64,000 nucleotides of DNA from Caenorhabditis remanei (taxonomy: Eukaryota > Nematoda > Chromadorea > Rhabditida > Rhabditidae). A model generated the notes under the pieces. That model was not told where the DNA came from and made no database searches. It saw only the letters and a program-made list of their open reading frames with translations. The stretch spans positions 17,918,001 to 17,982,000 of the forward strand of contig NC_071331.1 in the NCBI RefSeq assembly GCF_010183535.1. The letters are read 5' to 3'. The position numbers and the translations under genes were made by a program. The first letter of the stretch is position 1; each line of letters begins with the position of its first letter. This document shows, one piece after another, positions 8,436 through 40,437 of the stretch.

Positions 8436-8575
8436 TTAGCTCGACACAGTTCTTACAACTGCGCTCCACCGAAATCCACTTGTAATAATGTCTCTTTTTC
8501 TCTGAGTCTCTCAATTTCGCACACAATTTTCTTCGATTTCGGTAGAGCGCGGTTGTAAGAAGCGTGCCGTGCTAA
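8436..8575. mobile_element. Palindromic MITE, family 1, copy c (inverted)
   Basis: The left end is TTAGCTCGACAC and the right end GTGCCGTGCTAA. The shared core CTCAATTTCGCACACAA is in the opposite orientation to copies a and b, so this copy was inserted in reverse. Confidence 0.74.
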
Positions 8576-21999: not shown

Positions 22000-22005
22000 T
22001 TGATG
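22000..22005. repeat. Polinton target-site duplication, left
   Basis: TTGATG directly precedes the element's AGTAGTATAC end and is repeated at 32629-32634 directly after the other end. Six-base duplications are a Polinton/Maverick hallmark. Confidence 0.85.
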
Positions 22006-22866
22006 AGTAGTATACAGATTGTTTTAGGTGCATGCATAACGCAGGGGGCGGGGCTTGCGCCTCTTCCACCCACTGCGTTATGCATACGCTCCTAAAACAA
22101 TCTGTGAAAGTAAATGGTACTACTTGATAAGAAAATAAGATATTCACTGATTGGTGATAACTGATAAGAGTGTTGAGTTGAAAGATGGAGTAGTATGGAA
22201 ATTAGGTGTTGAAGGGATATGTTGAGATATGATAAAGAAGGAAATAAGGAGGTGATTACTGATAAGGTGATTACTGATAAAATGATAACGGATATGATGA
22301 TCACGGTAAAGTGGTTATCCGAACTACATTGCTCGAATTCCCAAAAAAAGTGATTAGTGATAAAGTGATAACTGATAAGGTGATAACTGATAAGGTGAGT
22401 ACTGTGAGGGGATCATCAGTTCACTACAGTATTCCAAAATCCAAAAGTAATCATTTGAGCAAGTGATAACTGATAAGGTGATAACTGATAATATGATGAT
22501 TACGGTAGAGTGGTTATCAGAACTACATTGGTCAAAATCCAGAAAAAGTGATTAGTGATAAAGTGGTAACTGATAAGGTGATAACTGGCAATACCGTGAT
22601 TACGATATAGTGGTTATCAAAACTACATTGCTTAAATCCTCGAAAAATTGATTAGTGATAAAGTGATAACTGATAAGGTGATAACTGATAATATGATGAT
22701 TACGGTAGAGTGGTTATCAGAACTACATTGGTCAATTTTCCAAAAAAGTGATTAGTGATAAAGTGATAACGGATATGGTGATACCGGATTAGATTAAAAA
22801 AAAGGAAAAAAACAGCGAAAAAAAAACCGCAGCTCGCTAGACTGCATAATGACAAGAATGAGCTAA
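22006..22866 (+). repeat. Polinton terminal inverted repeat, left
   Basis: The outer ~330 bp match the right end nearly base for base. The inner part has extra direct subrepeats (GTGATAACTGATAAG words and blocks containing ACGGTAGAGTGGTTATCAG) that make it longer than the right copy. It ends near CCGCAGCTCGCTAGACTGCAT, which is also shared. Confidence 0.8.
22014..22105. repeat. Subterminal foldback inside the left Polinton repeat
   Basis: Arm 22014-22044 (ACAGATTGTTTTAGG, then ATGCATAACGCAG) is the reverse complement of 22073-22105 apart from a small bulge. The ~28-base loop is GC-rich. The stem begins eight bases from the element end, and the same hairpin exists at 32529-32620. Confidence 0.8.
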
Positions 22867-23065
22867 TTTGGAAAATCAGACTATTATGTACTCTATGTTT
22901 CTCTAAAATCTCTTCTCTCTCATCACCATAGGTCATTGACATTTTTCAAAAGTTCACTTTTCCTTTGACACACCATCCCTCGTTTCAATAAAAAACACAG
23001 TTTTGAATTTTAATTAAAATTTATTTTCAAAAAAATTGTAAATAACAGAAAAAAGAAAAAAGTTA

Positions 23066-23617
23066 CTATTTATTTTGTTCAGTGGAAGTTGATTGATGAT
23101 TGGCCGACATTCTCGGTATTGGTTTAGGAAATTTAGCCAAGGTTGTTCGTTTTTGACAATCGACACAGAAATCGTATTCAAGAACCTCATTACTGATGGT
23201 GATTGATGGCCGGCAGCAGGGTGCCAATGCAACTGTCACACTTGCGCCACGTCCGGTGAGGACACACGGTAGCACTGAAATAACACTGTTCAATTTTTGT
23301 AATTTATTACTATTATGTTTACTTTTCTTCCATTTACTTTCTCCTTCTTCTACCAATTTTCCATCAACTGTCGTTTTCACTTCTGAAAAAAAAAGTTTTT
23401 TTTTTTGTTCATCAAACAAACCGTATAACGTTTTCGGGAACTTTTGAGCATGTGCAGGATACTTCAGAGCAAAGGTACGTTTTTCACACAAATTGCAAAA
23501 CTTTGAACGATATTTGCCATTCCGAATAGTAATAGTACTAGCACAAGAATCACACAGAGAATATACCAAAATTCCGGTTCCATTAACCAGAGCGCAAGCA
23601 GTGATATCGGACCACAT
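23066..23617 (-). CDS. Cysteine-rich protein with two zinc-ribbon-like modules, 149 residues
   Basis: Three exons join in frame: 23617-23422, 23382-23338 and 23274-23066, with short introns carrying GTTTGT and GTAAAT donors and TTTCAG acceptors. The protein contains a duplicated module: CDSC, about 19 residues, then FCNLCEKRT and a KYP ending; later PCC, then FCVDCQKRT with KFP. Such paired CxxC motifs suggest zinc-binding ribbons. An unspliced frame also stays open, so the splicing model is inferred from the signals and the better module match. It is the first gene inside the left Polinton end, transcribed towards that end. Function unknown; a nucleic-acid-binding regulator is one possibility. 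Confidence 0.6.
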   Translation of the reverse strand: MWSDITACALVNGTGILVYSLCDSCASTITIRNGKYRSKFCNLCEKRTFALKYPAHAQKFPKTLYGLFDEQKKKLFFSEVKTTVDGKLVEEGESKWKKSKHNSNKLQKLNSVISVLPCVLTGRGASVTVALAPCCRPSITISNEVLEYDFCVDCQKRTTLAKFPKPIPRMSANHQSTSTEQNK

Positions 23618-23941
23618 TGTGATTTTTTTTCTCAAACTCCTCAGTTTTATACCTATTCCTAAGCTCCGCCCCTAAAATTGTATCACCTAGAACCGGTTTT
23701 CGGAGCCGTCACCCTTTAGTTGCAGCCAAAATTGAAATGATGTCATCGAAAAACATTTCACAGAAGACGACTCAAAAACCTGTTTTCCAAAAATAGGTTA
23801 GATCCATCACATTTTGGAAGCCAACCAAGGCGGAATTGTTTCATCTAATAGTGTTTTTAAGTAAGAGAGTCCAAAGATTTCGGTAAAATAGGCTCCGCCC
23901 ACTAGCTTTATAAGGCCGGCTTCGGGGCAGTTTTCTTTGAA

Positions 23942-26900
23942 ATGGAGAAATGGAATACTCCTGGAGGTTTGTTTCATTTCATATATTCGGATTTTAATTT
24001 TGTTTTTACAGCTATCGACGAGACTATCGAAGAAGTTCGATCAAAAGTCAGACGAATTACTGGATCTGGCAAAAAAGTCAAATCACTTGAACAAATTGCC
24101 ATTGAATTTGAAAATAAGGATGGAACACAATTCATGACAGGTTAGATTGATTTAAAAAATGTAAAAAATAAAGTAAAGTTACTACAGAAGAAGAAATTTC
24201 TGAAATGAAGGAACACATTCTCTTTGAATATGAACCAAGATTTGTGTACCGTAATGAGAGCCGCGTCTCTTTACCAGAAACTCGGCTCCGGTTCAAAAAC
24301 AAAACCAATACTCCGGAAATAATGCAAAGGACATTTGATCAATTTATACGTTATTGTTTGGGAAAAGCCGGAGGAAATTTGGAAAAGACAAGAATGAGTT
24401 TTGGGTATACGTTGTTGTGTTTTTTTCAAAGAAAAAATGTTTTATTTTTAGATTTTTCCACGAAGGATTCCACAAAACTCAAGGTTTTTGGATCAATGAA
24501 AGGACGTATCAAACCTTCAATGGACAGGTGTTGTTTGATGAATTGGAACGCATTACTCAATCTAAAGAAGGAGTGGACATTGATGATACATTTATTATTC
24601 ACATGCACGTCTTTAATACATTTGAAGGAGGAGCACGTCGAAAAAACACAGTTAGTTAAAAAGTTCAAACATTAGTATATCTGATTTTAATTAAGCTTTT
24701 TGATGAGCAACTCAAAATACCTGCCCACGTCGTAGGAAGCGGTAAATGTCTACCGAAATCTGTAGCTATTTCGATGGCATTTCTTGCATCAAAGGAAAAC
24801 GAGACAAAACGTTTGGAATGGGAAAGAATGATCCGAGTAATGGTAAGTACTGTAAACGGATGGTATACTTCGATTTGTTCTTGTTTTTCAGTACAGAAGT
24901 CTAAATGAGAAACTACAGCTCAAAGCTGCAAATGTCATTCTGGAAAAAGCGGGGCTGCCCACAGATCAGCTAGTCTTTAACATTGATGATTTGGAAAAAA
25001 TTGCTGCAGTTTATCCCGAATACAAGTTTGAAGTCTACAGCAGACCCGCTTATGAAAAAGTTTACCAAATAATCAAAGAGTTGAATCTTGATGGCGAAAA
25101 AATTGTCACCATTGCTTTCAAAAAGGAAGATGAAGTTGGTCATTATGACTTCATCAAACCGTCATTAGTATACATGAAAACTTCGTAAGTGTTTACAAGT
25201 TTTTTTTGTTTTGAAATTGAACTTTTTTCCAGTTTTTGTCACAAATGCAAAAAGAAAACATCTTCGACAGGCCATTCTCAAGTTTGTGAAGCCAAGTGTG
25301 GAAAATGTGGATTTTATGAATGTGACAGAACTCAAATCGAGACAATTTATTGTGACAAGTGTAATACAAACTTTTCTAATCAAGATTGTTACAATGGGCA
25401 TTTGGAATGTGCATACAATTCGAAAAAATCAATGTGTGATAAAAGATATACGTAAGTTTTTTAAAATTAAAAAATAATGTCAGTACCGGGAAAAAGTGCA
25501 TTTCCAGATGTCGTGAATGCTTTTTTCGAGTGTGCAAAGACAAAATGTCACAAGATGAAGTTCACGAGTGTGAAAAACGTTCAAGATGTATGCAATGTAT
25601 GGAAATGTATGATAAAACTCGTTATCACAACTGCTGTTTCCAACCTCCAAGAAAAAGATTTCGAGAGTCAAAAATGAAGTCACAGAAAACTTACAAAATA
25701 TTGTGTTACGACGTTGAATCGATAGTGGTCAATTCATCTAATGGCCCAGGTAATGTGATGATTAAATCAATAAAAAACAAAGTTTTTAGATCATTCTCAA
25801 CCCCAGCCTAATCATAAGGTCAACCTCATTTGCTTCAAAATGATTTGTAACAAATGTGTCGAAGAGAGATTGGAATGTGACTGTGAATCTGGAAACTTTC
25901 ACTACTTTGAACACGTGGATCCGTTGGAAGATTTCACAGAGTTTCTATTGTACACAAAAAAGTTGGACGGAGCTTATGTCATTGCACATAATGGAGGACG
26001 GTTAGTTTTCTTAATTTTAGTCATTAAAACTTATTTTTTATTTCAGGTACGACCACAACTTTGTACTGTCAACTATGATTAAAAACTTTGGCATCATCCC
26101 TGACTACGTCTCAAATGGAACCTCATTAATAATGGCGGACATCACAAAAACAATGTGGCGTACTCAAGAGCACAACAACTTGAAATTTAGAGACTCTTTA
26201 CGGTTTATACCTATGGCTCTCTCAAAAATGCCAAAAACTTTTGGAATCACGGAGTTGAAGAAGGGATACTACCCCTACTACTTCAATCACAAGGACAACT
26301 ACGGTAAAATCTTGGATCGTCTTCCAGCAAAACATTTCTATGATCCGGAGCATATGAAACCTGAACCGTTGAGCGAGTTTGAGAAATGGTACGAAGAACA
26401 CCAAAATGATGTATTCGACGCTGACCAAGAACTATTGGCGTATTGTCAAAGTGACGTAGAAATATTGGCAGCGGGAGTGGCCGAGTATATCAAGGTACTC
26501 TTGTTTTGCTTGTTTTTAAAGAATTTTTTCTATAGATTTGCAAAAATTTGTTCAACAACTGGAACCCCATCATGTCAGCCTGCACAATTGCCAGTTATGT
26601 CCATCACATTCTAAAATTTGATCACTTTGGACGAGGCGACATAGGAATTATTCCAGAAAACGGCTTCCCCGAAAGAAATAATTCTGTTTTTGCACTAAAA
26701 ACGCTAATGTGGATCGAAAAAGAAACTGGAATTCGTATTCATCACAAACTACGTGGTCCTGAAAAGATGATCAGAATGTCGAACGGAGATTGTTATTTTG
26801 TCGATGGATTTGATGAGACCACCGACACTGTTTACGAAATTCATGGATGTTTCTACCACGGCTGTCCAAAGTGTACTAACCCTACATTGGAACACCCCAA

Positions 26901-28823
26901 TCACCCAGGTATCGAGAATAAGGCGATCTATGATGGTACAATAAAGAGAGAAGAACGGTTGAAAGAAGCTAATTACAACGTGATTAGTTGGTGGGAGCAT
27001 GAGATCAACGACATGCTCAAACAAAACTCGGAAATGAGAGATTTTTTCAACAAGGTGCTTTATTTTTTTGAAAATCTACGAATATATTTAAAAAATTTCA
27101 GTGCCGTCATGCAACACATCTCCGACCAAGAGAAGGAATGTATGGAGGTCGCACTCAACCATATCAAATGATTGTCGAATGTGAAGATGATGAAGAGTTA
27201 TGCTATGATGATTTCAATTCACTTTATCCATCTGTCAACATAATGTTCAAATACCCTAGAGGTCAGCCAATTGTCATCAAGACACATTTTCCTCCTATTG
27301 TAGTTGGTCAGCCCGTGAATAAAAGAGGTAGAATACTTGATAATATTTCAAAAAAAAATTGCATTTCTAGGACTCTACTTGTGTTCCATACTAGCACCAG
27401 CGGATATCAAAACTACCGTACTCCCCTACAAAATTCCAGGATTTTTAACATTCCCGAGTTGTAGAACATGCATCGAAAAAAATCAAAAAACTGCGTGCAC
27501 TCACAATAAAGTATCAGATCGTTATTTGACAGGAATTTGGACACATGTCGAATTAAATGCGGCGATTGAAAGAGGTGAGAAAGAGAAAAATAGACGAAAG
27601 GGAAACATTCTAATTTAGGATACCGCTTGCTTCAAATTCACGAAATTTGGTGGTGGCCTGATAGTAAATGGGAGACTGCAGACTACTTTGTCAACTATCT
27701 CAAACCAATGATACAACTCAAACACGAATCGTCCGGCTGGCCGAAAGATGATATGACCGATAACGAAAAAGATGCATATATCAGCGAGATTGCGCAAAGA
27801 GATGGTGTGACACTTGTGAAAGAAAACGTCAGAAAGGCGGACAATATGAGGGAAATGTCGAAACTATTTCTGAATACATGTTGGGGTGTGTTTGAAAAAC
27901 AGAAAAAAAAATCGAAAACGTATTTAATTCAGGAAAATTCGCGGAGAACCCGGTCAGGACGGAATCAAAAATATTTGAAACATTAGATCATGTTTCTCAA
28001 AGCGAGTACATGAGTACCCAAGGATTTGAAGTCAAAGGGATTGAAGATTGGGATTGTGGAAGGACTTTGATAACAAGGTCATCCAAAACCGAATCGGTTA
28101 AAACAAAACCGTTCACAAATGTAGCAATAGGTATGTCAACAATTAATTTTTTTTAAATTTACAAACATTTTGGACAGGGATTTACACCACTTCCTATGCA
28201 CGTCTGCGCCTCTTACAGGCAATGGAGGCAATTAGTTCTGAAAATTTGATATATGTTGGTGAGTAAGAAAAGAGAAAATTTATGAATCTAAACATTTTTT
28301 TCAGACACGGATAGTGTTATATATAAAAAGAAAATTGGAGAACCAAGTCCGGTTGAGCAGATGATTGGAGATGGTCTTGGAAAACTGAAATCAGAAATTC
28401 CTGCAGGATATCGAATGAAGAAGATTGTTTGCATGGCATCAAAAGTGTATTCTTATCGATTGGTACACACAGAAACAAAAGCAGAAAAAATTGTTACAAA
28501 GTTCAAAGGAGTAGTCCTCAATTCGTCAACCAGTCGAATAATCAACATGGAAACCATGGAATCTTCGGTAAATTTATTTAAACTTAAATTTACAAACTTA
28601 AAAATTTCAGGTCAGACAGTTTCTTGATGGCCAGACGAACATTATTTTGGCCCCGGAAAGAACAATGCGTCGAGCACAAGTATTGGGGAATGTTACGACA
28701 ACGCCTTTTGTCAAACAGCTCAAACCGGTGATGGACAAAGTTCGAGTTCTACCAGATGGTAAAACACTACCTTCTGGTTATTATCTAAATTGTCCATTAA
28801 TTGAAGATTACCCGTACTGTTGA
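23942..28823 (+). CDS. Protein-primed family-B DNA polymerase of Polinton type, 18 exons, 1366 residues
   Basis: Exons: 23942-23966, 24012-24140, 24188-24404, 24452-24650, 24696-24842, 24892-25184, 25233-25451, 25508-25749, 25790-26000, 26047-26494, 26536-27054, 27102-27327, 27371-27574, 27619-27885, 27933-28130, 28178-28258, 28305-28567 and 28611-28823. They total 4101 nt with every junction in frame and no stop. The N-terminal third has the SGKCLPKSVAIS block seen in Polinton polymerases, followed by a dense CxxC zinc region (about residues 340-440). Exonuclease motifs are YDVES (Exo I), AHNGGRYDHNF (Exo II) and YCQSDVEIL (Exo III). Polymerase motifs are DFNSLYPSVN (A), LFLNTCWGKF (B) and YVDTDSVIY (C), all with catalytic acids present. 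It should copy the element from a protein primer. The high intron number is unusual for a virus-like gene. Confidence 0.9.
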
Positions 28824-28829
28824 ATCTTT

Positions 28830-30980
28830 AAAATTCTTTATTTACTATCAAACTCTCAAGAGTCAAACTCTGCAGGGTGTCGCTCCAACCTACTTTAACT
28901 AGTTTTTTACTCTTGTGTTTTCGTTATGTCCTACAATTTTTCTATTCTATAAACATGTTTTTGTTCATTAAAAAAACTCCAGTATTCCCGAAACATGATT
29001 AATAACTAACTTTCTTAATTAAAGAAACACACAAGTGTCCAAATTAATTGGAAAACAGTAATAATCCACAAAATATGTCCACAAAATTGATAAATTATTT
29101 CATTTTTGTATGAAAAATGGAAAAACATGCGCGCGCACATTCCGAAAGAGATACCTCCTGCTGTTTTATCTCTGCATGTGTCCTTTCAATAACGGGTTAT
29201 TCTTGGGCAACGAAAAACGTTTTTCGCTGTCCAAGAATAGGCCCATAACATTTTCAATATACTGAGATTAAACTGGAAATTGAAGAACACACTAGATATC
29301 GTTCACTTTCAAAAAGAAAGTGTTGTGATAAATAGAACATTGGTTGGATTTAGTGGTGATTAATAAAACCTTTCAGCATGTATCCATATGTATTCAGTTT
29401 GTATGTACATGTGGATACATGGGTATTTATGGCTGGATATGTATGAATATGAGGGTGGTCTACAAGTATATCTATGAAAATTGGTAATTTTTCACTTTTA
29501 TTAAAGAAATTAGATGTTTTTTAATAGAAAAAAACAGGAATTGACTAACTCTTTGTGCGTAACTTGTGATTATGTGTAGATACATGTGCGGATGTGTGTA
29601 GAAATGTATGTTTATGTGGGTTAATCAATCACTAATTTCTCAATTTTTTCATTTTTCCTTTGGATATACAAAAAAATAAGGGTATTTCATCACTTTTTTC
29701 CATGATTTTCTCAATTTTCTTCCAAAATGAGGGTAATATATCTAGGTTTATCTAGTTTCATGTGCGGGAATGTGAGCGTGTGAGGGTAATTAATCACTTT
29801 TTTCCTGTACTTTCGGACGAATGCCATTGGAAAAATGGGTAACTGAGTATTTCTCCGTGTGTATTCATGTGATTGTATGAGTATGTCTGTATATGAGGAG
29901 TTATTGTTCATTTCGAAGTTATTTTCATGATTTAAATGGAAGATCTTAATAATTTAATAATTTTTCACAAGATTTTGTACATTTTCCTTCAAAATTAGTG
30001 TAGTTTGAAACTTTTAAGTGTGTACACATGTGATTATGTGTGGCTATTTGTTAGTACATATGCGGTTTATGTAGGCATAAGAGTGTTAATTGATAATTTT
30101 TTCTCTATTCTGACGAATTTCATATGAAACCTGGGTAATTGAATACTTTTTTTTGTGTGTATCCAGGCTATGAATGTGTGCATGCATGAGTATGTATGCA
30201 TAAGAGTGATAATTACACACTTTTTAGCGTGAATATATGAAATAAGCGTGTGGGTCCTGGTATTGACTTATGTCTGCCTATGGATATGTACGAAAATTTG
30301 TCAATTTCACCACTTTGGTTCAATATTTTTTCGCTTTTCAAGAGGAAATGAGAGTAATTTATCTATTTGTTTTGGTTGCACATGGAATTGAAGATGTGTG
30401 AGTACATGGGTTGATATGTAGGAGTGTAAATTTTTCAAATTTATGTCTAAGAAAATTGGTAATTTTTCACTTTTTTCCAAGAAACTAAAGGTTTTAATAG
30501 AAAAAACGGGGAACTGACCAACTTTTTGTGCGTAACTATGTGACTATGTGTGGATAAATTTATGGATACATGTGTGGATGAGTGTGGAAATGTATGTGCA
30601 CGAGGGGGATTTCAAGCACTAATTTATCAATTTTCCTTTTTGATATGCTAAAAATAGGGTATTTCGTCACATTTATCAATGTTTTTCTAGTTTTCCACCA
30701 AAATGAGGGTATTTTTCACTGTTTTTATTGTGTGTACATCTGACTATTTTCAGGTACATGTTTGTGTACGCATACATTTGGGGTATTTAATCACTGTTTT
30801 CCAAAATTTCACGCCAATCAAAAAAAAACGATGGTAAAAAATCAAACTCTTACTTTGAACTGAAAAAACACTCTGACTATTAGTGAAATTCAATCATTGA
30901 TACTGAAGGCTATTTTTAATGAATTAATTTATTTGAAAATTGAAGGATAAGAAAATAAAACAAGAACAAACAGAACAAAT
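28830..30980. repeat. Non-coding diverged repeats in the Polinton
   Basis: There is no supported gene here. The region is rich in TGTGTG and ACATGTG words. A block of about 260 bp at 29475-29740 recurs imperfectly at 30460-30730, sharing GGTAATTTTTCACTTTT, TTTGTGCGTAACT and AAAATGAGGGTA. It may be the decayed site of lost Polinton genes or a spacer. Confidence 0.6.
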
Positions 30981-30985
30981 GTCAT

Positions 30986-31557
30986 TTAAGAGTTGAGGGT
31001 TATTCCAATCATTCGTCGAGCTAATTTTTCAACTTTTCTACGAATATCATTTTTGAAGTTTAAGTCTTTAACATATCCATGTTTTCTTCCTAGAACAGTA
31101 ATCTGTTTTGACACAGATATTAATGCATCCCATCTCTCCTTCTTCTCCAACTGTTGTCGCTCTCGTATCTCTTCATCTGTCTCCGTCTCAATGTGATGAA
31201 TCAAATCGATTGGATACAAACTGCCTTTATCTTTTTTTGATATAAACATATGGACCTGATGGGTGGTTGGATTGGACCGCCCATTCCCGTTGTATGTAGC
31301 TGACTATACTCACTAAATGACCGTTTGACCACCAATACTCGTGTTTGGGGCTAAAAATAGTTTCAGATAAATATTAATCATTATGAAGCTTACTTTCTTG
31401 AGATTTGTGGAACTCCATAAATGGTACAGCGACGGTGTCGAATTCGTAAATGAATACTTCCGACAAAATCGTCCAAAATTTGGTTGAGAACATCATCTGA
31501 TAAAGATTTCCAATTGGGGAAGTTTTGGTCAAGAAAATACTCAAAACGGGAAAGCAT
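30986..31557 (-). CDS. Unknown Polinton-borne protein, 156 residues
   Basis: Three exons join in frame: 31557-31394 (GTAAGC donor), 31350-31314 (GTGAGT donor) and 31255-30986, ending TAA. The N-terminal part reads FEYFLDQNFPNWKSLSDDVL, followed by a basic patch HLRIRHRR. The C-terminal half is a charged helix with EIRERQQLEKKERW, then a basic tail ending ITLNS. No family is recognised, and nothing resembles integrase, ATPase or capsid motifs. Its position next to the right terminal repeat, transcribed inwards, mirrors the left-end gene. Non-overlapping reading frames in the exons support the splicing model. Confidence 0.55.
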
Positions 31558-31949
31558 AATGAGGCTTTGTTCATTCGTTCAAGTTTATATACATAATTTA
31601 GGCTCCGCCCACAACTGGAAAAGAGCTATTAATCAATGTCCGAGTTTGTTGAATGACATTGAATACGAACTGCACACATTTCAATTGGGTGGTAACAAGT
31701 TGTTACTAACGAACTAGAACATCTGCTATTACTGGAGAGAATGGAAATTTTAAAACGTAGCCATAGTCACATGAAAATAAAAACAGTAAAATAGGAATAA
31801 TCAGGGTTGAAAATCAAATTTCCCGTGTCGGGAAATGTTCACACATGGAAAGAACTTTGAATTCTTACTCAAAAACATGATTAATTGATCTCTTGAAACC
31901 GGTTCTCAGATTTCGTTACAAATATGGGTAGTTTTCGTGAAAAAGCTCA

Positions 31950-32628
31950 TTCTTGTCGTCATGCGGTCTAGCGAGCTGCGGTTTTTTTTCGCTCTCGTTT
32001 TTTGAATCATTTTTGAATCATTTTTTAACCTTGAACTTATCAGTAATCTTTTTTTTATCATGAAATTTTCCTCACCGTAATTTTTTTGGTTCTATCAGAG
32101 TACTGGTTATCCTCTACCAGTCAGACCTTATCTCTTATCACCTTATCAGTTATCACTTGCTCAAATAATTACTTTTGGATTTTGGAATACTGTAGTGAAC
32201 TGATGATCCCCTCACAGTACTCACCTTATCAGTTATCACCTTATCAGTTATCACTTTATCACTAATCACTTTTTTTGGGAATTCGAGCAATGTAGTTCGG
32301 ATAACCACTTTACCGTGATCATCATATCCGTTATCATTTTATCAGTAATCACCTTATCAGTAATCACCTTATCAGTAATCACCTCCTTATTTCCTTCTTT
32401 ATCATATCTCAACATATCCCTTCAACACCTAATTTCCATACTACTCCATCTTTCAACTCAACACTCTTATCAGTTATCACCAATCAGTGAATATCGTATT
32501 TTCTTATCAAGTAGTACCATTTACTTTCACAGATTGTTTTAGGAGCGTATGCATAACGCAGTGGGTGGAAGAGGCGCAAGCCCCGCCCCCTGCGTTATGC
32601 ATGCACCTAAAACAATCTGTATACTACT
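31950..32628 (-). repeat. Polinton terminal inverted repeat, right
   Basis: This is the inverted counterpart of 22006-22866, shorter because it has fewer GATAACTGATAAG subrepeats. It ends CTGTATACTACT at 32628 and is followed by TTGATG. Confidence 0.8.
32529..32620. repeat. Subterminal foldback inside the right Polinton repeat
   Basis: This is the mirror of the hairpin at 22014-22105: ACAGATTGTTTTAGG on the left arm pairs with CCTAAAACAATCTGT on the right. Confidence 0.8.
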
Positions 32629-32634
32629 TTGATG
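32629..32634. repeat. Polinton target-site duplication, right
   Basis: TTGATG matches 22000-22005. Confidence 0.85.
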
Positions 32635-33801: not shown

Positions 33802-35312
33802 TTACAAAGTCAGTGAACAGGGATCTTCTTCGCCTTGAGTTATTTTGATACCAGAGACAAAGTTGATGAATAGATTTGAATTAGGGATCGGGTATGTTTG
33901 AAGGGAGTCACGATTTTCAAGGTTCAGCGTTCTTTTGAGTGCTTCCGTGTCCAAACAGTTCCTCTTATATATTGTGCATGCAGTGAAATCGGGCGATTTG
34001 GAGAGTGCCTGAAATAATAATTATTATGATTAGGCAGCAACTAAAAGGCACCTACATCTACTAACTTGACAATCTCTTCAATTGAAATCTCTTGGACACG
34101 AATATCAAATGTATCAAAGTGGTAAAAATGCTCGATTGACGATGAGATTAATTTATTGATCGTGACATGTTTGGCCTGTTTCCACTGGTCTGTCACAGCC
34201 ATTTCATCAATATTCAGTGTGCTCTTAGACTCCTGCTCAATTGTCAGTGTTATCTTTCGAAGAATTCCAGACTTCAAACATCTCAAAACTGTGGTCACAT
34301 CTTCCACATTACTCGCCGTCATCGTTAAAAATGTCGAATGGATTTTGTGATTCATTGAGACGAGAAACCCTTTGAAATCGTCGATTCGTTTCTGACGTGC
34401 CTCATTGAATTCAGGATGAGAGTTCCATGCCCAATGTCCCGAAACCGTGGAATAATCGTAAACCAAATCAATAAATAGGAAATTTAATCGAAGCTTCGGG
34501 TTTTTCAGTTCAGGAGACACCTCTTTGAATAGAATCGCTACATCTTCTACTTTTATTTCTTCTTTTCTTTCTCTTTCTTTTTTTTCGACTGCTTCAATTT
34601 TCATTTCCAAGTTGAAATCATCACGATACTCTACGAAAAAGCCACGATCTCGAATATTGATTTGAATCTTTTTGCACGGTGGTTTCACTTCTTCATCCAA
34701 AATTTTTTGAAGTCCATGTGACACATTTCGAAGCTGTCGACTGAAAAAAATGAGACTTTTGAGGAGATTTTCAAAGGAACGACGAACACACATTTCTGCA
34801 ATATCGAACCGTTCAACGAATCTCATCACAATTTCAATCGGCAAATCGGAGAATGTGAGAAGATTGAATGGAGGGCTGCAACAGTTTTTCATCAATTTTT
34901 GAAAGTTTAAATCGATAACTCACCTTGAATTTTGAAATCTTTCGCTCCAATAATCATGATCATCCTTTTCAATTGTTTCTTTTCCAAACGCTTTTCGCAA
35001 GTCCTTTATTGATTTTTCCGTTGATTTTTCATTGATTACATCGGAAAGAACGCATAAACGAATATCTAAATCTCTGAAAATTAAATAACTTCTCGAATTT
35101 TTTTTATTCATAAACGCTTGCCTAGAGAGACTCTCCTTCGAACATAAATGGAAAAGATTCTCGAATTTTTCAAACGAAAATGGCTGCTTTCCTGTCGCGG
35201 AACACAATTTTTCGTAGTTTTCATATGATTTTTCGATCGTTTTTTGTTGATAAATATTATAGAAAATGAGTGTTCGGAGATCGATTGGAATGTTTGGAGG
35301 GATTTCGGCCAT
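33802..35312 (-). CDS. F-box protein with N-terminal HTH-like and C-terminal FTH (DUF38) domains, copy A
   Basis: Four exons give 454 residues: 35312-34924, 34875-34792, 34740-34056 and 34008-33802. The start at 35312 follows an AATTTCAG acceptor, likely a trans-splice site. Residues 1-130 resemble the Mos1-type helix-turn-helix module found in nematode FBXA proteins (RTLIFYNIYQQKTIEKSYENY). An F-box follows (FSDLPIEIVMRFVERFDIAE, then RQLRNVSHGLQ), and the rest matches the FTH domain, with FKGFLVSMNHKIHS and LRCLKSGILRKITL. F-box proteins recruit substrates to SCF ubiquitin ligases through SKP1. The family expands rapidly in Caenorhabditis and is often proposed to act in antiviral or anti-transposon defence; the substrate here is unknown. 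No damage is seen. Confidence 0.85.
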
Positions 35313-36418: not shown

Positions 36419-38142
36419 GGTAGCAGCGAGTTGCGTCTCAATTTTGAGACGTTTAAACACCCACCCACCCACCCCGTTTTTTATTGATTTTTAGTGCGCA
36501 CGGGCTTTTACTTCCTTTTTCTAGTTAACAGGAGGGCCCGCCTGTAGTTTTAGGTTAGTAATTGTAGGATTTCATTAGTATTTTAGGTAAAATTTAACAT
36601 TTTGGGTTTCATTTAGGTTATTGGGAAGCGCGACTGTAAGAACCGTCTTCACCGGTTAAAGTAGGAACTGCTGGGGTTGCCTAGATTCGTGAGCTCACAT
36701 TGGACCGCCGTCCATTGTCGCATTCCCTACTTCCCCTCTTAACAAAATTGTTAATGCATTACAATTTTTCGGCCCGTTTAAACTCGTTATCGTTTCTCTG
36801 TCCGGTTATTCCCGCCGGCAGAGCTCCCCCTCGGTTATCCCGTTTCAGCTGGTACGAAGCACATTTGGTACTTCGACGCGCAAACGACAATCTGGCATCG
36901 TCAACAGCCAAGGAATAGTTCAACGACAAAGAACATCTGCACAACTGCACGCAGTCACACAAAAGGTAAATTTATTCGAGGTCCTGGTACAGAGTAGTGC
37001 GGGAAGTTTGATAATGGGATGACCACCGCGTCATCTCTCAAACGAACCCCACAACTCTCAGGCCTCGCAGTTTCAATCTGTAACTGAGTGTGAAAGCATT
37101 CTCCACAACTAAAACCATTGCATTTCTGTTGTCGCGAGATAGCAGAAAGTGATGAGCCAATTTTTCCATTCGCGATGGTCGTCGAAGTACAGCTGATCGG
37201 ATGAAAAGTGAAGATATTTGCTCCGCTTCAGAGCATGAAGTAAGGTGAGAACAGCAAGCCTGTATACACAAGCCCCTCAAAGCAGGGATGGTCCGCAAGG
37301 TCGACACGGACATAGCGAGGTGAGAACAGCATCGTGACTGTGTCCGCTCCCCCTATAGTCACTAGGGATGACTTGCCGTAGGTGCAAGGCAGAGACAGCG
37401 CTCGGACGCGAGCATGGAAGTGGTATGTACAGAAGATTCGCGTACATACACCCCCTTCGCAGTCAAGGGATGGTCAGTAAGCAGAAAAATAGTAAGTTTA
37501 GCCCCTACGCAGGCTAGGGATGGTATCAGAAGCCTCCAACAGGAGCAGCAAGAAGTTTGGAGACAGGTAGAAGGAAGAAACCTGTAAATTTAGCCCTTTT
37601 GCACAGGGAAAACCACGCCAGAAGTGGGTTTTCAACGAAGTAGACGCGAAATGGTCATCAGTTTCCGCTCAAGGAAGCATTTCGTCGTCGAAGTTGTTCA
37701 CCGGACGCAACATCACTGTCCAATCACGGAAAACATCTGAAAAGTCTGCGGCGTTCTCTCAAAACCCCAGATTTCCAGTTATCGGCAGAGGAATTCACCG
37801 AAAATCGATGGAGTACAGTAAAAACTTATTTTCAGGTTACTGTAGTAAAGGCACACGTGCGGCGGCCGTCGACGGGTCTCAACACGAGAGCGCGCGCGAC
37901 GCGAGCCGCGTCGCCCACAGTCGACGTAAACAACAACAAAACGTCATTTCGTCATTTTCGAAACTTCGCCGACGCCGTTTTGTCGCATTTTTGCTCCTTT
38001 TTGTCGATGTTTTCGCGTTTCAGATGCTTTAAGAAATTTTTCGCAAGCGTTTCAGCAATTTTTAACGACAAAATGCTGTCAAAATTGTAGAATTTGCCTA
38101 TAAAGACACCAAATTCGTCTTGGCCTAAAATTTTCCTCGTTT

Positions 38143-40437
38143 TTGTTGTTAACATTCGTCGATTTCAGCCTATTTCCGTTCGTTTTCGTCTTAAATCGTA
38201 CGCTCATTAAACACATTTCCAGGCTGGAGCGAACATCGAACAGCGAAAAAGAAGGAGGCGTAGCCGCAGGCGTGGCCACGAGCGAAGTCGGAACATGGGA
38301 TGACCACCGTGTCATCCCTCCGTCGAACGCTTGTGGCACCGGCGAAGCCTCCACAGTGATTCACACCCAACCGAAGGATGCGTCGGGTGTAAACCCGAGC
38401 ATCAGTCAAAACCCAACCGAAACAGGTGGTATGTCGGGCGTTGGCTCGGATGCCAACCTAATTGTTAACCAATTGAAAGAGATTGGAGAACTCCGAGATC
38501 TGAAAAGCCTTTCAGATATCGATGGTACATGGAAGCATCAATTGCTTGGATACACCGAGGAACCAGTCAAGGCAACTGAAGAGGACAATGGAGAAGATTC
38601 TGTCCCTCGAGTATTGACAGAAACAGCCAGAGAAGACTGCAACGTCTCCGCTTCGGCAAACAAAGATCGAATAGCAACAATCGATGAGAAAACGTCAGAA
38701 GACGACAAGAAAAGAGCATTTCCCACTGCACGGAAGAATCTGGCAACTACATGGGATGCAGTCGAGACAATCCAAGCCGAACAACCGAACAACTTGGTAT
38801 CGCGCACCGGTCAGATGAACCGAACAATCTTCGAAGCGAGTAGAACAAGCCAATTGGTGGATTCCCCGTCGACAAAGATCAAATGCTTAGAAAGGAAGGT
38901 AAGTGAAACGTGTCTCTGTTCCGGAGTAGTGGACATGGTCGGAAAATGGGATGACCACCGTGTCATTTCTCCAACTACCCCCACTTCTCCAAGAGCTCGT
39001 TCATTGTCTTCGAACCGTGGCTTACGCCCACAGATCTCACACACCCCTGTTGTCATGAGACAGCAGGGCGTTTCTCGTGATGAATCTGCTGCCGACATGG
39101 ATTGGTCGCAGAGGTTGATCGATGCTAGAGAAGGCATCATGGAGAATAGTCATCCACCCATGGCTAACAATATGACTCCGATTAGGAACGGAAGCCCTCA
39201 ACCTGAAGAGGAGAAAGACGAGAGCATTCCACACGCTAATCCTGACATCACATCGCCAAATCCGGAAGACGTGCAAGCAGCTGTGACAGCAAGCGGAGGA
39301 ACCACATCTCCCGGAAGCACACCTCCATTGAGACTCAGCAACGGAAACTTTCCAAAGATCCAGGAAGCGGCTGCTTCTGAAGCCAACGATGAGGATGAGG
39401 ATGAAGCCAATCAAGTCAATCAAAGGCGAGCGGAGATTAACAAAGAAGAAGGCTTTCTACCTCACGTCATGGCACCACCGTTCAAGTCGGCAACTTCGTT
39501 ACCAGCCCATGAAGACATCAACAATTCCGTGCGGTCATTCAAAGATCAATTGGTCACGATCAATCCAGATGCTTCACAAGAAGACTCCAGGAGAGCATTC
39601 CTCACCGTCCTCAAGTATCGAGCACGACACAGAGCTGAAAGCATGCTGATAGAAAAGCCAGAGTCGACACTCAACGAACTGGTTCAAGGTTTGAAAGAGA
39701 TGTTCGAGTGCACTAGCCATGTGCAGCGGAACAAGACTCGTTCGCGATCAAGCAATGAGTTGCCAGGCGAGTCATCTGCCGATTCCCTCTTCCACAGGAC
39801 CATCAAACTGGCTAAGCAGTCGTACCACGAGTATCAGAAGAACCTCGAGTACCAGAAGGAAGACGTCACACTTGAGAAGTTCCTGGAAGGATTGAACCAG
39901 GCAATCAAAAGCCTGGTCATACGGGGGGCACAATCGACGATAGATCAGACCCGGTACACGGCCCGTGAAGGAGAAGCATGTCTCGTTCCCAACCAGCAAC
40001 CGCCGGAGCCCATCCAATTGCTTGCGCCACCGGCAGCTTCGTTGTCAAACACGACAACCAATCACAAAGATCAAGATGACTGTCGGGACCATCGGTCAGA
40101 ACGACACGGTCGGGACGACGACTACAGAGGTCGCAGTCTTGAGAACGATCCCAAGGTAAGTCGAAGAGAAATCTTGCTTACTTTTACAGGAAAGTGTCAC
40201 TATTGTGGTAAAGTAGGACACATGGCAAGAAGCCACAAGCTGAAGCAGCGGTCAGTGGCCAACCAGCAAAAGTCAAAGGATCCCATGAGCAACCACCAGA
40301 CCATCCAGGTGGATGCTGAAGAAGAAGCGTCATGCGGTGTACGTTCACTTTCACCCCCCACCTCTATCACAATTGCCCCCCACCTGCACGGTAGGGAATG
40401 GCCCCCCATTTTCCTTTCATTATCGATTCAGTTTTAA
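38143..40437 (+). CDS. Gag-like protein of the LTR element, up to 764 residues
   Basis: A long open frame fills the middle of the element; the true start is uncertain because the first 30 residues are hydrophobic and unlike the rest. The body is hydrophilic and repeats a WDDHRVI motif twice (near 38299 and 38949). A helical region follows (SADSLFHRTIKLAKQSYHEY, then TLEKFLEGLNQAIKSLV), typical of retroelement capsid/nucleocapsid regions. An Arg/Asp-rich stretch leads to the zinc knuckle CHYCGKVGHMARSH, which has His in the last ligand position instead of Cys. Gag would package element RNA in particles. A 34-base sequence at 40156-40189 has full intron signals; splicing it would remove the frame of the knuckle. 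Confidence 0.75.
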   Translation: MLLTFVDFSLFPFVFVLNRTLIKHISRLERTSNSEKEGGVAAGVATSEVGTWDDHRVIPPSNACGTGEASTVIHTQPKDASGVNPSISQNPTETGGMSGVGSDANLIVNQLKEIGELRDLKSLSDIDGTWKHQLLGYTEEPVKATEEDNGEDSVPRVLTETAREDCNVSASANKDRIATIDEKTSEDDKKRAFPTARKNLATTWDAVETIQAEQPNNLVSRTGQMNRTIFEASRTSQLVDSPSTKIKCLERKVSETCLCSGVVDMVGKWDDHRVISPTTPTSPRARSLSSNRGLRPQISHTPVVMRQQGVSRDESAADMDWSQRLIDAREGIMENSHPPMANNMTPIRNGSPQPEEEKDESIPHANPDITSPNPEDVQAAVTASGGTTSPGSTPPLRLSNGNFPKIQEAAASEANDEDEDEANQVNQRRAEINKEEGFLPHVMAPPFKSATSLPAHEDINNSVRSFKDQLVTINPDASQEDSRRAFLTVLKYRARHRAESMLIEKPESTLNELVQGLKEMFECTSHVQRNKTRSRSSNELPGESSADSLFHRTIKLAKQSYHEYQKNLEYQKEDVTLEKFLEGLNQAIKSLVIRGAQSTIDQTRYTAREGEACLVPNQQPPEPIQLLAPPAASLSNTTTNHKDQDDCRDHRSERHGRDDDYRGRSLENDPKVSRREILLTFTGKCHYCGKVGHMARSHKLKQRSVANQQKSKDPMSNHQTIQVDAEEEASCGVRSLSPPTSITIAPHLHGREWPPIFLSLSIQF

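What the first reader, a model, noticed from the sequence alone, without database searches (positions are those of the whole stretch)
22006..32628. Compact Polinton/Maverick with intact ends but only a polymerase and two unknown genes
The sequence shows 5'-AG ends, long inverted repeats, an exact 6-bp duplication TTGATG and a complete protein-primed polymerase. By family knowledge a Polinton should also encode a retroviral-type integrase, packaging ATPase, protease and capsid proteins. None is visible in 10.6 kb. Either this is a deletion derivative mobilised in trans, or it is a minimal lineage that replicates without capsids. Caenorhabditis Mavericks have been linked to gene transfer between species, so a reduced form is of interest.
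Basis: partly seen in the sequence, partly recalled or inferred. Interest (0 to 1): 0.9.

Follow-up and report, generated by a model that had tools for sequence, protein, structure and literature searches.

The report
Polymerase half of a split Polinton
This worm element is a virus-like transposon that has kept its own DNA polymerase but lost its integration and shell genes, and the same genome holds sister elements with a matching end motif that carry those lost genes and no polymerase, so the virus genome appears to have split into two cooperating halves.

Summary
In detail: AGTAGTATACAG ends, inverted repeats of about 490 bp, an exact TTGATG duplication and an open polymerase gene (16 predicted exons, 1354 aa). 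The spacer is not empty: it holds a decayed integrase C-terminus (28808-28979) and the last bases of the capsid gene (from 30882), so this is an internal-deletion derivative.

In this Caenorhabditis remanei genome the same 12-base end bounds seven polymerase-only elements ("P", window included), three polymerase-less elements ("X") with integrase, ATPase, protease and double jelly-roll capsid genes, and two short ones. None of these twelve is complete. All ten P/X elements have 6-bp target duplications.

Six P copies share integrase-killing deletions, so they spread with integrase supplied in trans. Yet their polymerase evolved under strong purifying selection (dN/dS 0.10-0.17). X copies share one junction that removes the polymerase region.

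Best reading: a Polinton genome split into two complementary, separately integrating halves. Trans-mobilisation of P is close to shown; mutual dependence of P and X is inferred. Limits: only one X copy has all frames open, and the window's own terminal 235 bp are just 56-57% identical to X ends. The main rival is cis-acting defective elements parasitising complete Polintons.

The parts
22000..22005 (.). left target-site duplication TTGATG
   Evidence: read directly
22006..22491 (+). left terminal inverted repeat, begins AGTAGTATACAG, with 15-bp TGATAACTGATAAGG-type tandem units
22013..22106 (+). terminal hairpin; 17 of 42 pairs show compensatory change over 12 element ends
   Evidence: DNA fold z -10.4
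23066..23617 (-). Cys-rich ORF (CYS), 183 aa, matched in all seven P elements
   Evidence: no Pfam hit; 3 protein-database hits, all C. remanei
23942..28823 (+). [quoted passage not shown]
   Evidence: DNA_pol_B_2; introns chosen among candidates with GT and AG in at least 6 of 7 copies; open and in frame
28808..28979 (-). decayed C-terminal remnant (aa ~303-359) of the integrase gene
   Evidence: 80% DNA identity to the intact integrase end in L033
28980..30881 (.). non-coding spacer, shared in pieces (70-82%) with other P elements
30882..30910 (+). last ~29 bp of the major capsid gene: the other edge of the deletion
   Evidence: start of the match to L033 8445-9309, whose capsid frame ends at 8473
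30986..31553 (-). broken copy of the gene next to the capsid (ORFz)
   Evidence: 30882-31768 is 87% identical to L029
31632..31768 (-). fragments of a second small ORF (orfy) found in X elements
32128..32628 (-). right terminal inverted repeat
32629..32634 (.). right target-site duplication TTGATG

Best explanation
The element belongs to the replication half of a split (bipartite) Polinton. An ancestral Polinton with order pol-integrase-ATPase-...-capsid-ORFz gave rise to two complementary deletion forms that kept the same kind of ends. P keeps the protein-primed polymerase and a Cys-rich gene; X keeps integrase, ATPase, protease and capsid and lacks the polymerase and Cys-rich genes. Proposed cycle: P's polymerase, primed by its terminal-protein domain, copies both DNAs from their hairpin-bearing termini; X supplies integrase (6-bp duplications) and probably capsids. 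SHOWN here: complementary gene content, shared end motif, 6-bp duplications, shared dead integrase in six P copies, a shared junction in three X copies, purifying selection on pol in P and on the main X genes between two X copies. INFERRED: replication of X by P's polymerase, integration of P by X's integrase, packaging, and mutual dependence. The window copy is an internal-deletion member with a more diverged pol and terminal 230 bp.
For: 12 elements can be paired by this end: 7 P (window, L030, L031, L032, L034, L035, L038-40), 3 X (L029, L033, L036/37) and 2 short (109 bp at C2:2945748-2945856, by coordinates only; 421 bp at C4:21000857-21001277). None is complete. 10 of 10 end pairs checked besides the window have perfect 6-bp duplications. 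X genes: rve E 2.8e-9, Chromo E 1.7e-7, ATPase to Pox_A32 E 3.9e-4, just under its cut-off; protease to ASFV S273R E 7.8e-5; capsid model (of P0001, 98% identical) pLDDT 81, best fold match Sputnik capsid E 1.2e-16, then iridovirus and mavirus capsids. Integrase remnant in the six P copies besides the window: 2-bp deletion in 6 of 6, 4-bp deletion in 5 of 5 that reach it, no match to the catalytic part; hence dead before dispersal to six different duplications. Pol: 5 of 7 P copies open in all 16 exons; dN/dS 0.10-0.17 in 15 of 15 pairs among the six, 0.06-0.07 in 6 of 6 pairs with the window. X: L029 vs L033 dN/dS 0.06 (integrase), 0.07 (capsid), 0.12 (protease), 0.15 (ATPase); same pol-side junction in 3 of 3; no pol or Cys-rich match. 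Ancestral order in a degraded relative with both halves, L049/L050. Window aside, P and X ends are 80-95% identical. A second polymerase-less family with other ends exists.
Against: Mutual dependence is not tested. 18 loci have hits to pol, integrase and capsid together (clustered) and might supply missing functions, though these ends were not found there. The window's own terminal 235 bp are only 56-57% identical to X ends, no X element with the window's end type was found, and the window's integrase remnant does not reach the shared lesions, so for the window copy itself trans-mobilisation and a live partner are less direct. Only L029 of the three X copies has all frames open: L033 has a shifted ATPase end, and L036/37 has frame breaks in integrase and ATPase, a capsid deletion and an insertion in ORFz; dN/dS against L036/37 is higher (integrase 0.25, ATPase 0.28). 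The end tree does not reject P and X ends as separate clades (AU p 0.16). 2 of 7 P copies have a broken first exon, and L038-40 has another Polinton inserted in pol. 25 of the 48 end motifs are unpaired (the reversed control gives 16 matches); only one (C52) was read, and only in part. Purifying selection on pol could also reflect a polymerase that acts mainly on its own DNA.
Confidence: 0.58

Rival explanations
1. P elements are selfish deletion derivatives that parasitise complete Polintons. They keep pol because a protein-primed polymerase, whose terminal-protein domain becomes attached to the DNA it starts, works best in cis; X elements are a second, unrelated class of defective copy.
For: 18 loci carry hits to pol, integrase and capsid together. 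Polymerase-only elements arose in other families too: 19 loci with inverted pol pairs, one with ends and a 6-bp duplication checked; pol of two palindromic elements compared gives dN 0.03, dS 0.59. Two of three X copies show decay.
Against: X copies share a pol-less junction yet sit at three different 6-bp duplications, so they were copied by a pol supplied in trans. None of the twelve paired elements with this end is complete. P and X are complementary in gene content.
Confidence: 0.32
2. A minimal autonomous lineage: pol plus two small genes replicate and integrate without integrase or capsid.
For: Long persistence as a pol-bearing form: pol dS 0.07-0.26 among six copies.
Against: 6-bp duplications and AG ends shared with integrase-bearing elements; integrase and capsid-gene remnants inside P; one of the two small genes is a broken fragment.
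Confidence: 0.04
3. Ordinary dead copies: each complete Polinton decayed after insertion by independent deletions, and the resemblance among copies is incidental.
For: Some copies are broken: L032 and L038, L033 and L036/37.
Against: Junctions and lesions are shared across insertions with different duplications, and pol is under purifying selection.
Confidence: 0.06

Closest known systems
Polinton/Maverick (Polintoviricetes), e.g. Caenorhabditis briggsae polinton 1
   Same: Protein-primed PolB, AG termini, long inverted repeats, 6-bp duplications; the X partner has rve integrase with chromodomain, ATPase, Ulp1-like protease and double jelly-roll capsid. Polinton gene set as described in PMC11071308 (abstract and passages seen); the AG ends and 6-bp duplication as Polinton marks are recalled.
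   Different: Known Polintons carry the whole set on one DNA; here it is divided between two separately integrated elements, each about 9-11 kb unless enlarged by insertions.
Bidnaviridae (Bombyx mori bidensovirus)
   Same: A two-segment genome related to Polintons through its protein-primed polymerase and terminal repeats (PMC4061559, passages seen).
   Different: Single-stranded segments in separate capsids; the second segment carries reovirus- and baculovirus-derived genes rather than the complementary Polinton genes.
Multipartite viruses arising from complementing defective genomes (bipartite foot-and-mouth disease virus in culture; the 'cheating' model)
   Same: Complementary deletions with common ends. 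PMC5680193 (passages) reports the culture case; PMC10159356 (abstract, outline and passages) gives the theory.
   Different: RNA virus or theory; here a double-stranded DNA, genome-integrating animal element. Table 2 of PMC5680193, as seen in a passage, lists only Polydnaviridae among dsDNA families with segmented genomes in one capsid.
Cytoplasmic linear plasmids (pGKL type)
   Same: Capsid-less replicons with a related protein-primed polymerase, derived from (proto)polintons by loss of the morphogenetic module (PMC11071308, passages).
   Different: They are not integrated with 6-bp duplications and have no capsid-bearing partner with the same ends (recalled).

Membership tests
Polinton/Maverick (window element alone) | terminal inverted repeats with 5'-AG ends and 6-bp target duplication | tested here: met
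[quoted passage not shown]
   relatedness to the pol of loci that also hold integrase and capsid. Terminal-protein and OTU domains were judged only by position and by PMC11071308, not by a model hit
Polinton/Maverick (window element alone) | retroviral-type integrase | tested here: not met
   only a decayed ~57-codon C-terminal remnant
Polinton/Maverick (window element alone) | packaging ATPase, Ulp1-like protease, double jelly-roll capsid | tested here: not met
   in 28600-31100 the best ATPase match is E 0.014 and protease E 0.65; only the last ~29 bp of the capsid gene remain
Polinton/Maverick (X partner elements) | integrase, ATPase, protease and capsid present | tested here: met
   all frames open only in L029
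Polinton/Maverick (X partner elements) | polymerase | tested here: not met
   no pol exon matched in L029, L033, L036, L037; integrase lies next to the terminal region
Bipartite (split-genome) virus | complementary gene sets on two DNAs with common ends | tested here: met
   for the window copy itself only the 12-base motif and the subterminal region are close to X
Bipartite (split-genome) virus | both parts maintained by selection | tested here: met
   dN/dS well below 1 for pol in P and for integrase, capsid, protease and ATPase between L029 and L033; the third X copy is decaying
Bipartite (split-genome) virus | each part depends on the other for propagation | not testable with these tools
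   needs population sequencing or experiment
Bipartite (split-genome) virus | both parts packaged in virions | not testable with these tools
   no particle data

The most novel reading that the evidence does not exclude
A double-stranded DNA virus lineage of animals has become bipartite: its genome is divided into two genome-integrating halves (replication and integration/virion) with shared hairpin ends, arisen by complementary deletion. Similar losses in other Polinton families of the same genome (a second polymerase-less family and 19 loci with inverted polymerase pairs) suggest that such division is recurrent.
Probability: 0.47. Interest if true: 0.9.

Novelty: new variant of a known kind. 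Interest (0 to 1): 0.77.

Why it matters
Polintons are thought to be near the root of many eukaryotic DNA viruses, yet are described as single-piece genomes. A Polinton divided into complementary halves would be a rare split dsDNA virus and a natural test of the idea that multipartite genomes arise when complementary cheats displace the complete virus (PMC10159356, abstract). It also changes how 'defective' Maverick copies are read: the polymerase-only copies here are not plain debris, because their polymerase is under selection. Searches of open-licence PMC papers showed no title or abstract start reporting a split Polinton. The most relevant paper, Jeong et al. 2023 on nematode polintons, was not held, and most subscription papers are not, so this is not proof of priority.

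Tried and rejected
Considered and rejected: (a) a single odd copy, since six more P copies exist; (b) post-insertion decay as the origin of the forms, since lesions and junctions are shared; (c) a minimal autonomous lineage. Led nowhere or inconclusive: Pfam on the Cys-rich ORF and ORFz; the AU test on the end tree; the search for a polymerase partner of the second polymerase-less family, where beyond its own two elements only short fragments matched its ends; palindrome ends as a query, which gave no match near an integrase hit, though a capsid fragment lies about 8 kb from one match on contig C49. In the clustering I left out second hits of one gene, integrase rows below about 108 bits except six remnants, and many weaker capsid rows; its class 'integrase/capsid without pol' (39) is unreliable because pols of distant families may be missed, and it is not used. 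dN/dS for pol used matches that run into introns and is superseded. The per-domain part failed with an error after the main table and was not repeated.
Full report
WHAT WAS CLAIMED AND WHAT IS THERE. The window is G000:C4:17918001-17982000 of a 130.47-Mb genome in 186 contigs. A C. remanei protein in the database lies on a contig of 25,790,997 bases, the exact length of C4, so the host is Caenorhabditis remanei. The element 22006-32628 has the stated ends, inverted repeats and TTGATG duplication. Its polymerase matches Pfam DNA_pol_B_2 over the cut-off in two exon pieces and weakly in a third. Fifteen predicted introns divide it into 16 exons, open and in frame for 1354 aa. The introns were picked among candidates already filtered for GT and AG in at least 6 of 7 copies, and no transcript was available.

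THE SPACER IS NOT EMPTY. Between pol and the right end, 28808-28979 is 80% identical to the 3' end of an intact integrase gene on the opposite strand, with indels. 30882-31768 is 87% identical to a stretch that starts in the last ~29 bp of a capsid gene and runs through the next gene, ORFz. ORFz is broken in the window: its two parts lie in different frames. The window copy is therefore an internal deletion of a larger Polinton, from integrase to capsid, with 1.9 kb of non-coding filler.

SISTER ELEMENTS. The window's terminal repeat gave 53 matches in its own genome, and the 12-base end occurs 48 times against 16 for the reversed control. Ten pairs of ends were aligned: all ten begin AGTAGTATA and have perfect 6-bp duplications. 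Nine are long elements and one is a 421-bp element; with the window and a 109-bp pair seen by coordinates only, twelve elements can be paired. P (pol plus Cys-rich gene): window 10.6 kb, L030 9.4, L031 9.4, L032 9.9, L034 8.8, L035 9.7, and L038-40 27.7 kb with another Polinton inserted in pol. X (no pol): L029 11.1 kb, L033 10.6, L036/37 13.6 kb with an insertion in ORFz; no pol exon matches in the loci read. None of the twelve has a complete gene set. 25 of the 48 motifs remain unpaired and, one contig apart, unread.

WHAT X CARRIES. Integrase with rve and chromodomain, and an ATPase matching Pox_A32 just below its cut-off; a cysteine protease whose only PDB match is the African swine fever virus protease S273R; and a capsid protein. 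The model of its 98% identical database relative P0001 (pLDDT 81) matches Sputnik, iridovirus and mavirus major capsid proteins. Several further ORFs are unassigned. All frames are open only in L029: the L033 ATPase end is shifted, and L036/37 has frame breaks in integrase and ATPase, a capsid deletion and the ORFz insertion. P0001 is C. remanei CRE_13793, and a Cys-rich homologue is CRE_11462; that the CRE_ prefix marks another strain is recalled. If so, genes of both halves occur in a second strain.

ANCESTRAL ORDER. A degraded relative at C6:21.379-21.399 Mb (L049/L050) carries pol, then integrase, ATPase, capsid and ORFz in the order that P and X together reproduce. X lacks pol and the Cys-rich gene, with one shared junction in 3 of 3 copies. 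The six P copies besides the window keep nothing recognisable beyond an integrase remnant, and their right end is an inverted duplicate of the left end, about 1.0-1.5 kb, including part of the Cys-rich gene.

P MOVED WITHOUT ITS OWN INTEGRASE. In those six copies the integrase remnant has no match to the catalytic part and shares a 2-bp deletion (6 of 6); the five that reach the site share a 4-bp deletion. The gene was dead before these copies spread to six different duplications, so integrase came in trans. The window's own remnant does not reach those two sites.

BUT P KEPT ITS POLYMERASE. Among the six, dN/dS is 0.10-0.17 in 15 of 15 pairs, and 0.06-0.07 in 6 of 6 pairs with the window, where dS of 1.7-2.1 is near saturation (Nei-Gojobori in my own script, pairs not independent). 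5 of 7 copies are open in all 16 exons; L032 and L038 have a shifted first exon, and L038's last exon is cut by the inserted Polinton. L034 has no ATG at the window's start position. With pol dS up to 0.26 among the six, the reduced form has lasted. X genes are also constrained: L029 versus L033 gives 0.06 for integrase, 0.07 capsid, 0.12 protease and 0.15 ATPase, while TM (0.54) and ORFz (0.44) are not clearly so, and values against the decaying L036/37 are higher for integrase and ATPase (0.25, 0.28).

ENDS. Window aside, P and X ends are 80-95% alike, and some P ends are nearer to X ends than to other P ends; the window's are 56-57% identical to X ends. The tree does not separate P from X, but one X clade is not rejected (p-AU 0.16). 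The first ~105 bases fold into a hairpin (z -10.4). Over 12 ends, 17 of 42 pairs have compensatory changes; 0 of 500 shuffles reach that number, though the count of pair types is no higher than shuffled (179 of 500), and slid controls reach at most 5 pairs. Correction of one arm by the other during replication could also produce this.

THE WINDOW COPY IS A MOSAIC. Against other P copies its terminal 230 bp are 58-60% identical and pol dS is 1.7-2.1, yet the Cys-rich stretch 23056-23655 is 90-97% identical and the ORFz region 87% identical to X. Chiefly the ends and the polymerase are diverged, which fits co-evolution of a polymerase with its own origins and exchange of the rest. This is inference.

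RECURRENCE. A second polymerase-less family, with AGTAGTATG ends, has integrase next to the terminal repeat at C5:15998020-16008894 (duplication ATTGCT) and C2:17820870-17834195 (TGCATT). 19 loci hold two pol genes in inverted orientation. In the four read, the long arms are 98.5-100% identical; one, C5:16136640-16157410, has ends AGTAGTGATT and duplication TACATC.

MECHANISM AND CONFIDENCE. I think it likely (0.58) that P and X form a two-part system: P's polymerase replicates both from hairpin ends; X supplies integrase and probably capsid. Trans-mobilisation of the six P copies is near certain (about 0.9); mutual dependence is inferred. The main rival is that pol acts mainly in cis and that P and X separately exploit complete Polintons: 18 loci hold hits to pol, integrase and capsid, though these ends were not found there. 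Against it, X spread with no pol in cis. Interiors of five unplaced contigs with these ends remain unread, although no pol, integrase, capsid or Cys-rich hit lies on them.

LITERATURE. Seen: PMC11071308 (abstract and passages), PMC4061559 (passages), PMC5680193 (passages), PMC10159356 (abstract, outline, passages), PMC6431247 (passages). The listings showed no split Polinton. Jeong et al. 2023 was not held.

Noticed in passing
C2:5474000-5489500, C4:1873000-1889000, C5:16136640-16157410, C4:5188000-5207999 (L041-L048, L055): Giant near-perfect palindromes with a Polinton polymerase in each arm and no integrase or capsid hit: 19 loci with inverted pol pairs by search hits, four read, one with ends and a 6-bp duplication. 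Pol between L043 and L047 has dN 0.03, dS 0.59. They look like inverted-dimer (copy-back) derivatives.
   Followed up: partly
C5:15998020-16008894 and C2:17820870-17834195 (L053, L054, L056, L057): A second Polinton family without polymerase, integrase directly inside the terminal repeat; no polymerase partner with the same ends found.
   Followed up: partly
22013-22106 and mirrored at the right end: Terminal hairpin with compensatory changes across 12 element ends.
   Followed up: yes
L052 (C52:13500-20000): A terminal repeat of the same family interrupted by about 4 kb with long ORFs resembling a non-LTR retrotransposon (judged by eye); contigs C13, C78, C94 and C107 show the same spacing between end and repeat array. 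Interior not read.
   Followed up: partly
L038-L040 (C4:24286678-24314355): A P element with terminal repeats identical over 1308 bp whose pol gene holds another Polinton with its own integrase and polymerase.
   Followed up: partly
C4:32654-33137, C2:4839826-4840295, C43:17066-17546: Weak (30-39%) homologues of the Cys-rich protein lie on the capsid side of loci with pol, integrase and capsid, but next to pol in P elements; unexplained rearrangement.
   Followed up: no
window 34041-34919 (-) and 38104-40437 (+): Flanking ORFs: an F-box-like protein and a gag-like ORF with a CCHC knuckle (judged by eye, recalled motifs).
   Followed up: no
P0021 (C. nigoni): A C. nigoni capsid fragment (52% of the query covered) is 82% identical to the X capsid protein, closer than the 56-63% of several other C. 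remanei copies in the same list: possible transfer between species.
   Followed up: no
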